A DNA stretch of 64,000 nt, from NCBI GenBank assembly GCA_949297715.1, contig CASFTJ010000007.1, positions 1 through 64,000 of the forward strand. Direction: 5' to 3'. The translations under genes and the position numbers were made by a program. This DNA is from an uncultured bacterium (GTDB lineage: Bacteria > Cyanobacteriota > Vampirovibrionia > Gastranaerophilales > Gastranaerophilaceae). Under the pieces are notes generated by a model. The model saw only the letters and a program-made list of their open reading frames with translations. It was not told where the DNA came from and searched no databases. Positions 26,222-26,727 of this stretch are shown here, piece by piece (position 1 is the stretch's first letter; every line of letters starts with the position of its first letter).

Positions 26222-26410
26222 ATGCCTAAGACACTTTCCGAAAAGCAAAAGAAAAGACAGAGGGTGTTTTGGATTGAAAATAAGAATAAGCAGATAGTCA
26301 ATGCTAAGTTTTGAAAGATTGGATTAAAGATAGTTAGACACAGTCTTCAAAAGGTTTGCGAAGGAGCAGATGTTCCGGATTATAAATTGGCTGTTGCTTC
26401 AGGTGGTTAG
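26222..26410 (+). pseudogene. Broken small gene before tRNA-Ile
   Basis: An ATG frame reads MPKTLSEKQKKRQRVFWIEN and reaches a TGA at 26312 after 30 codons. The same frame continues KIGLKIVRHSLQKVCEGADV and ends inside the first tRNA-derived repeat at 26410. Both parts look protein-like, basic and then mixed, so this is probably a short gene with a nonsense mutation whose end was replaced by tRNA sequence. No family is recognised. The interval 25920-26220 upstream holds only AT-rich DNA and the promoter at 26161. Confidence 0.4.
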
Positions 26411-26690
26411 AGCACTCTGCCGAGAAAAACAATTGAGTATTGTTTTTCGAGAGGCCTGATAAGGGTCAAATGTTCTGGATTTTGAAAATAGCATAAATGA
26501 TTTATGGGCTGCTAGCTCAGGTGGTTAGAGCACTGCTGCTAGCTCAGGTGGTTAGAGCACTCTGCCGAGAAAAACAATTAAGTATTGTTTTTCGAGAGGC
26601 CTGATAAGGGTCAAATGTTCTGGATTTTAAAAATAGCATAAATGATTTATGGGCTGCTAGCTCAGGTGGTTAGAGCGCACCCCTGATAAG
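26401..26690 (+). repeat. Two 145-bp direct repeats made of tRNA-Ile fragments
   Basis: The block 26401-26545 is repeated at 26546-26690 with only a few differences. Each copy has a D-arm segment of tRNA-Ile (AGGTGGTTAGAGCAC), then a hairpin with arms GAAAAACAAT/ATTGTTTTTC, an anticodon-arm-like CCTGATAAGGGTC, and a second 5' half GGGCTGCTAGCTCAGG. The second 5' half of copy two is the start of the intact tRNA at 26651. This looks like the scar of repeated integration or slipped duplication at the tRNA gene. Confidence 0.85.
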
Positions 26691-26727
26691 GGTGAGGTCG
26701 GTGGTTCGAGTCCACTGCGGCCCACCA
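26651..26727 (+). tRNA. tRNA-Ile (anticodon GAT)
   Basis: The 77-base sequence folds as a complete tRNA. The acceptor arm is GGGCTGC..GCGGCCC, the D-arm GCTCAGGTGGTTAGAGC, the anticodon stem ACCCC..GGGGT-like around CTGATAA with anticodon GAT, and the T-arm GGTGG-TTCGAGT-CCACT. CCA is encoded. The acceptor stem has one mismatch-like T/G position. It is followed by a UUCG-loop terminator at 26765. Confidence 0.95.

What the first reader, a model, noticed from the sequence alone, without database searches (positions are those of the whole stretch)
26401..26727. Tandem 145-bp repeats of tRNA-Ile fragments ahead of the intact tRNA
Seen: two 145-bp copies carry tRNA-Ile D-arm and anticodon-like parts interrupted by a hairpin with GAAAAACAAT arms. 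Each copy contains two 5' halves, and the final one is the real tRNA start. It suggests repeated integration and excision or slipped duplication at the tRNA, and gives decoy tRNA fragments that may be transcribed.
Basis: seen in the sequence. Interest (0 to 1): 0.65.

Follow-up and report, generated by a model that had tools for sequence, protein, structure and literature searches.

The report
Mobile hairpin repeat targeting tRNA genes
The duplicated tRNA pieces hold two copies of a 41-base DNA hairpin that belongs to a dispersed, apparently mobile repeat family in a gut-dwelling order of cyanobacterial relatives; it inserts at one precise kind of site in tRNA genes, next to which an intact copy of the tRNA is kept.

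Summary
The tandem repeat is real: two 145-bp units, 98% alike, lie ahead of an intact tRNA-Ile(GAT). They are not an integrase scar. Each unit carries a 41-bp hairpin, ACTCTGCCGA-arm-YTRARTR-arm-GAGAGG, which belongs to a dispersed family. The family occurs in 88 of 146 sampled genomes of the window's family (up to 35 strict matches per genome). It appears confined to the order Gastranaerophilales: none in 5 other genomes of the class or about 155 other Cyanobacteriota. The arms covary strongly.

About half of sampled copies sit just 5' of an intact tRNA, or antisense at its 3' end, inside a partial tRNA copy. The left junction falls directly before G-N-A in 51 of 52 distinct sites, across 19 tRNA/orientation classes (background 6.5%). 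The element replaces 4-7 target bases. Five congeners carry one unit at the same tRNA-Ile locus without a mobile element beside it, and others are empty, so the window's second unit looks like a recent tandem duplication. A separate serine-recombinase element lies on the tRNA's 3' side.

Best reading: a new family of miniature palindromic mobile repeats aimed at tRNA genes; mobilising enzyme unknown (RAYT, IS110 and reverse transcriptase are each absent from several element-rich genomes).

The parts
26389..26413 (+). Left-most, degenerate copy of the tRNA-Ile 5' part (GGCTGTTGCTTCAGGTGGTTAGAGC)
   Evidence: sequence
26414..26454 (+). Hairpin element, copy 1 (ACTCTGCCGA-GAAAAACAAT-TGAGT-ATTGTTTTTC-GAGAGG)
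   Evidence: covariation of the family
26455..26466 (+). Continuation of the target after copy 1: CCTGATAAGGGT (tRNA-Ile anticodon arm); GCACC of the tRNA is replaced by the element
26467..26505 (+). Leader / spacer of unit 1
26506..26531 (+). Exact copy of the first 26 nt of tRNA-Ile
26535..26558 (+). Second copy of the tRNA-Ile 5' half (27-bp direct duplication, TRF 26508-26565)
26559..26599 (+). Hairpin element, copy 2 (loop TAAGT)
26600..26611 (+). CCTGATAAGGGT after copy 2
26612..26650 (+). Leader of unit 2, directly ahead of the intact tRNA
26651..26727 (+). Intact tRNA-Ile(GAT)
   Evidence: ARAGORN; Rfam RF00005 63.6 bits

Best explanation
The 41-bp hairpin is a member of a miniature, non-coding, palindromic mobile repeat family of Gastranaerophilales. 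It inserts with a precise left junction directly 5' of a G-N-A trinucleotide and replaces 4-7 target bases. Its targets are mostly the D-arm region of tRNA genes (in tRNA-Ile the D-stem/anticodon-stem junction AGC|GCACC), the antisense T-arm side of some tRNAs, and other palindromic repeats. At tRNA genes the copies that persist lie in a partial tRNA duplicate (leader plus tRNA 5' part) with the intact tRNA beside it, so tRNA function is kept. Such units then multiply in tandem by unequal recombination or slippage. In the window an older single unit at tRNA-Ile was duplicated once, with an extra 27-bp duplication. Shown here: the family, the covariation, the target rule, the tRNA link, the duplication of the flank, occupied and empty orthologous sites, the recent second copy. 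Inferred: mobility by an enzyme that reads the hairpin (probably as single-stranded DNA), and survival only where a duplicate spares the tRNA. Unknown: the enzyme, and whether the insertion step itself makes the duplication.
For: Dispersed family: 88/146 family genomes, 0 reversed-pattern hits; 142 copies in 115 GTDB stretches; 0 in IMG/VR. Arms differ between copies but pair: 95% of cells paired, 77 double changes against 19.9 in shuffles, slid controls at most 58%. tRNA link: 58 copies face the 5' side of a same-strand tRNA, 13 antisense, 27 cut off by a contig end, 40 none. Target: G-N-A in 51/52 distinct sites, background 0.065, 19 tRNA/orientation classes (sites listed). Left flank repeated 3' of the element in 58/76 tRNA-linked copies against 5/76 best-of-30 shuffles and 13/55 for copies without a tRNA. 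Occupied and empty orthologous tRNA-Ile loci with the same MgtE_N neighbour. Near-matched empty and filled site in a repeated module: GTACAC|GGAGT|GCGAGTGGCGCC against GTACAC[el]TA|GCGAGTGGCGCC. Many identical copies at unrelated places of one genome, e.g. G123.
Against: No mobilising gene was found: Y1_Tnp/RAYT, RVT_1 and IS110 are each absent from several element-rich genomes. Right junctions vary by 0-3 extra bases and 4-7 lost bases, so a clean excision product is not defined. Part of the spread is passenger movement within larger repeats. Sites in related genomes are not fully independent. MAG contigs often end at these arrays, so copy numbers are lower bounds.
Confidence: 0.78

Rival explanations
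1. One reading: repeated integration and excision of an integrase-borne element at the tRNA left the partial copies as att scars.
For: A serine-recombinase element does lie at the 3' side of this tRNA, and L199 carries both a related one and two units.
Against: Same unit in five congeners with no recombinase in the 3' flank held. The repeated part is the tRNA 5' side, while the window's integrated element borders the 3' side. The hairpin occurs at many other tRNAs and outside tRNAs.
Confidence: 0.05
2. Selected RNA structures: the units are tRNA-promoter-driven small RNAs (decoys or processing controls) built from tRNA 5' parts plus a conserved hairpin.
For: Constant ends and loop with covarying arms; a second hairpin after the element, often with a GNA loop, in 28% against 2% of controls; long outer stems in all 11 tRNA-Leu(GAG) units and several Met units; tRNA 5' part and leader kept.
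Against: The outer stem is not general (0.32 against 0.22 in controls). The window unit folds no better than shuffles. Antisense copies at tRNA 3' ends duplicate the terminator side instead. Patchy presence, even within a genus.
Confidence: 0.15
3. REPIN of a RAYT (Y1 transposase): the hairpin is a REP-type substrate of RAYT proteins in these genomes.
For: Palindromic, non-coding, dispersed; weak positive link between RAYT presence and copy number (p 0.015, not corrected for kinship); 4 of 32 RAYT loci inspected have an element within about 300 bp.
Against: No RAYT match in the window's genome or in element-rich G006, G022, G161. The two RAYT loci read in full carry different terminal repeats, and in L313 the RAYT cassette abuts a truncated element, i.e. 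it looks inserted into it.
Confidence: 0.1
4. No mobility: ancient tRNA pseudogene fragments maintained by template switching that keeps palindromes perfect, inherited vertically.
For: Loop inversion in G006 and perfect arms are what quasi-palindrome correction makes; the unit is shared by several congeners at tRNA-Ile.
Against: The same 41-bp sequence with the same ends at unrelated loci and in different host repeats, and empty orthologous sites.
Confidence: 0.05

Closest known systems
REP / REPIN elements with RAYT transposases (PMC3116915)
   Same: Short, non-coding, palindromic, dispersed, hairpin with compensatory changes, extragenic clusters and tandem runs.
   Different: No RAYT match in this genome; RAYTs of the order that were read carry other terminal repeats; strong tRNA targeting with replacement of GNA-starting target bases; constant ends ACTCTGCCGA/GAGAGG.
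Cyanobacterial small dispersed repeats (SDR; named in PMC3116915, details from memory) and STRR repeats
   Same: Very small repeats in the same phylum, thought to be mobile without a known enzyme, said to lie in stem-loops of RNA genes (memory).
   Different: Not compared by sequence; the present family is confined to Gastranaerophilales and tied to tRNA genes with duplication of the tRNA 5' part. The original SDR paper was not available here.
Rickettsia palindromic elements
   Same: Small palindromes that insert into genes (from memory).
   Different: Those are known for insertion in protein-coding genes (memory); no sequence comparison was made.
tRNA-targeted integrative elements (serine or tyrosine integrases)
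   Same: Use tRNA genes as landing sites and leave partial tRNA copies.
   Different: No gene in the element, 41 bp only, target G-N-A shared by many tRNAs and by non-tRNA repeats, repeated 5' side.

Membership tests
REPIN/RAYT | RAYT (Y1_Tnp, PF01797) encoded in the host genome | tested here: not met
   None in G000; 13 genomes with 8 or more elements lack it; assemblies are near-complete MAGs, so absence is not absolute
REPIN/RAYT | The element flanks its RAYT gene as the RAYT's own repeat | tested here: not met
   28 of 32 RAYT loci have no element; the two near ones read in full have their own repeats GTAGGGTGCAAT or GTAGGTTGGGGT
REPIN/RAYT | Dispersed palindrome with covarying arms | tested here: met
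Integron attC site | Core sites RYYYAAC / GTTRRRY flanking the hairpin | tested here: not met
   read by eye: absent from the consensus ACTCTGCCGA..GAGAGG (sequence)
Integrase att scar at tRNA | Present only where an integrase element is or was integrated | tested here: not met
   five congeners with the unit, no recombinase in the 3' flank held
Known Rfam RNA family | Match to a covariance model | tested here: not met
   only tRNA reaches threshold
IS110-guided or RT-driven element | Presence of IS110 transposase or reverse transcriptase in carrier genomes | tested here: not met
   each is missing from many element-rich genomes
Miniature mobile element (any kind) | Precise ends, fixed target rule, filled and empty sites | tested here: met
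   left end precise with GNA in 51/52 sites, filled and empty sites found; but the right end is variable
Miniature mobile element (any kind) | Observed transposition or an identified transposase | not testable with these tools
   no strain series or experiment; candidate transposases tested do not fit
Cyanobacterial SDR | Sequence identity to a described SDR family | not tested
   no SDR sequences at hand

The most novel reading that the evidence does not exclude
A minimal mobile hairpin whose insertion step itself copies the adjacent tRNA 5' region, so that the essential target is restored in the same event: a gene-free element with its own kind of transposition (precise left end at GNA, loose right end, target-base replacement, linked tandem duplication), served by an enzyme family not yet connected with transposition.
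Probability: 0.15. Interest if true: 0.85.

Novelty: new variant of a known kind. Interest (0 to 1): 0.6.

Why it matters
No earlier description was found in the open literature searched. A 41-bp hairpin that colonises at least 19 tRNA/orientation target classes across an order of gut bacteria, with a one-trinucleotide target rule and a spared tRNA next to most insertions, raises a testable question: what moves it, and how does the cell keep an essential tRNA through insertion. The arrays also break short-read assemblies at tRNA genes and would be read as tRNA pseudogenes or integration scars by annotation.

Tried and rejected
Rfam families on the window and on five loci: only tRNA. RAYT as mobiliser: rejected. 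Reverse transcriptase and IS110: no useful correlation. A general outer stem that pairs the tRNA 5' part with the right flank: looked striking in tRNA-Leu(GAG) and Met but failed as a general feature. A conserved unit RNA at the window: z -0.76. A longer autonomous version with a gene inside: the CACTCTGCCG scan of G000, G006 and G161, with the 30 fetched loci read for hairpin context only, showed no such copy but does not exclude one. Promoter scan ahead of the tRNA gave nothing above shuffles. Literature searches found no description.

Full report
What is there. The window (contig C7 of a 2.02-Mb, 99.6% complete genome) has an intact tRNA-Ile(GAT) at 26651-26727, preceded by two 145-bp units (TRF 26399-26676, 98% match). 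Each unit contains a piece of tRNA 5' half, a 41-bp hairpin, the piece CCTGATAAGGGT of the anticodon arm, and a leader.

The hairpin is a repeat family. A search of relatives with this stretch hit the hairpin alone in many genomes. A strict pattern (ACTCTGCCGA, loop YTRARTR, GAGAGG) occurs in 88 of 146 genomes of the window's family, up to 35 per genome, and never for the reversed control. Wider sampling places it in the order (own family, plus f6 and f7), with none in 5 other genomes of the class nor in about 155 other Cyanobacteriota, and none in IMG/VR. The ends and loop are constant while the arms vary and stay complementary: 95% of cells paired, 77 double changes against 19.9 in shuffles. 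It is not an Rfam family.

Where it sits. In 142 copies from 115 GTDB stretches, 58 face the 5' side of an intact tRNA on the same strand, 13 face a tRNA from its 3' side (antisense), 4 lie behind a tRNA, 27 are cut off by a contig end, and 40 have no tRNA near. The own genome has arrays at tRNA-Ile(GAT), Pro(TGG), Leu(GAG), Met(CAT) and Leu(TAG); the last is probably split over two contig ends. Mapping each insertion on the neighbouring intact tRNA shows a precise left junction: the next three target bases are G-N-A in 51 of 52 distinct sites, in 19 tRNA/orientation classes, against 6.5% of positions in the same tRNAs. Related genomes make these sites partly dependent, but every one of the 19 classes shows a GNA site. 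The element replaces mostly 4-7 bases (GCAGC in Pro, GGAAT in Leu, GCACC in Ile, GTAGC in Val/Thr, GGAGTC in antisense Leu), after which the target resumes with 0-3 extra bases. Copies outside tRNAs lie in other repeats, such as GTCATCCTGAGC[el]GCGAAGGATC, and in a repeated module that offers a near-matched empty and filled site.

Duplication. The left flank (leader and tRNA 5' part) is repeated 3' of the element in 58 of 76 tRNA-linked copies, against 5 of 76 for the best of 30 shuffles; in copies without a tRNA it is 13 of 55. This is what one expects if insertions into a tRNA persist only where a duplicate spares it, or if insertion makes the duplicate; the data do not separate the two. In G004 the copies lie 3' of tRNA-Ile, in longer pseudo-tRNA copies, one of which carries a second hairpin in its T-arm.

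The window's own history. The locus is syntenic (MgtE_N gene upstream) in congeners. G001, G006, G009, G010 and G012 have one unit, with the tRNA's own terminator behind it and no recombinase match in the ~1.5 kb of 3' flank held; G005, G007 and more distant genomes have none there by the strict pattern. Copies 1 and 2 of the window are 97% alike, the nearest congener unit 91-92%. So the tandem is a recent doubling of an older unit. The serine-recombinase element (26662-28308 and 28747-29901) sits on the tRNA's 3' side and is a separate matter.

Mechanism. I take it as a miniature non-autonomous mobile palindrome. Supported: family, target rule, empty and filled sites, tRNA link. Inferred: an enzyme that recognises the hairpin, probably as single-stranded DNA. 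RAYT is not the likely one: it was not found in this genome and in 12 other element-rich genomes, and in the two RAYT loci near elements that were read in full the RAYT carries other terminal repeats, in one case abutting a truncated element. Reverse transcriptase and IS110 do not track it either. I looked for a general RNA fold of the units; an outer stem is clear in tRNA-Leu(GAG) and some Met units but not in general, while a second hairpin with a frequent GNA loop follows 28% of tRNA-linked copies against 2% of controls. An RNA role therefore stays open as the main rival.

Known kinds. It works like REPIN/SDR-type miniature palindromic repeats (PMC3116915, for REPINs; SDR details from memory), but membership in REPIN/RAYT fails on the RAYT criteria tested. 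I rate it a new variant of a known kind. Literature searches found no description, with the limit that subscription journals are mostly missing.

Noticed in passing
window 26662-29901: Two large serine recombinases (Resolvase/Recombinase/zinc ribbon) lie directly 3' of tRNA-Ile; the reading frame of the first runs about 20 codons antisense through the tRNA 3' part. A related one sits at the same tRNA in L199. In window and L199 the tRNA encodes CCA; in the congeners with the unit it does not.
   Followed up: partly
L014/L055 (G006 tRNA-Ile unit): The inner part of the hairpin is inverted (GATACTCAATC for GATTGAGTATC) with intact outer ends, as expected from hairpin template switching.
   Followed up: no
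L025 1260-1295, L130, L137: Further hairpins with the same loop ATTRAGTAT but other ends (CTCC..GGAG, CTCT..AGAG), also inside pseudo-tRNAs or next to the element: a wider hairpin superfamily.
   Followed up: partly
L087, L093, L161, L182, L191: A roughly 300-bp repeated intergenic module (GTCTGAG..CCTCGCTTGTA.. to ..TAGACCCCATG..) that carries the element at a fixed place; function unknown.
   Followed up: no
L313 1900-1930, L298: RAYT cassettes with their own repeats lie beside elements; in L313 the RAYT repeat abuts a truncated element, as if inserted in it.
   Followed up: partly
G000 C17 start and C26 start (L276, L277); many relatives: Contigs break inside these arrays next to tRNA genes, so array lengths and tRNA counts in such MAGs are underestimated.
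   Followed up: partly
G006, G009, L048, L049: Another dispersed palindrome, GTCATCCTGAGC..GAAGGATC..AGAATGACG, carries the element in several copies, so part of the spread may be as passenger.
   Followed up: no
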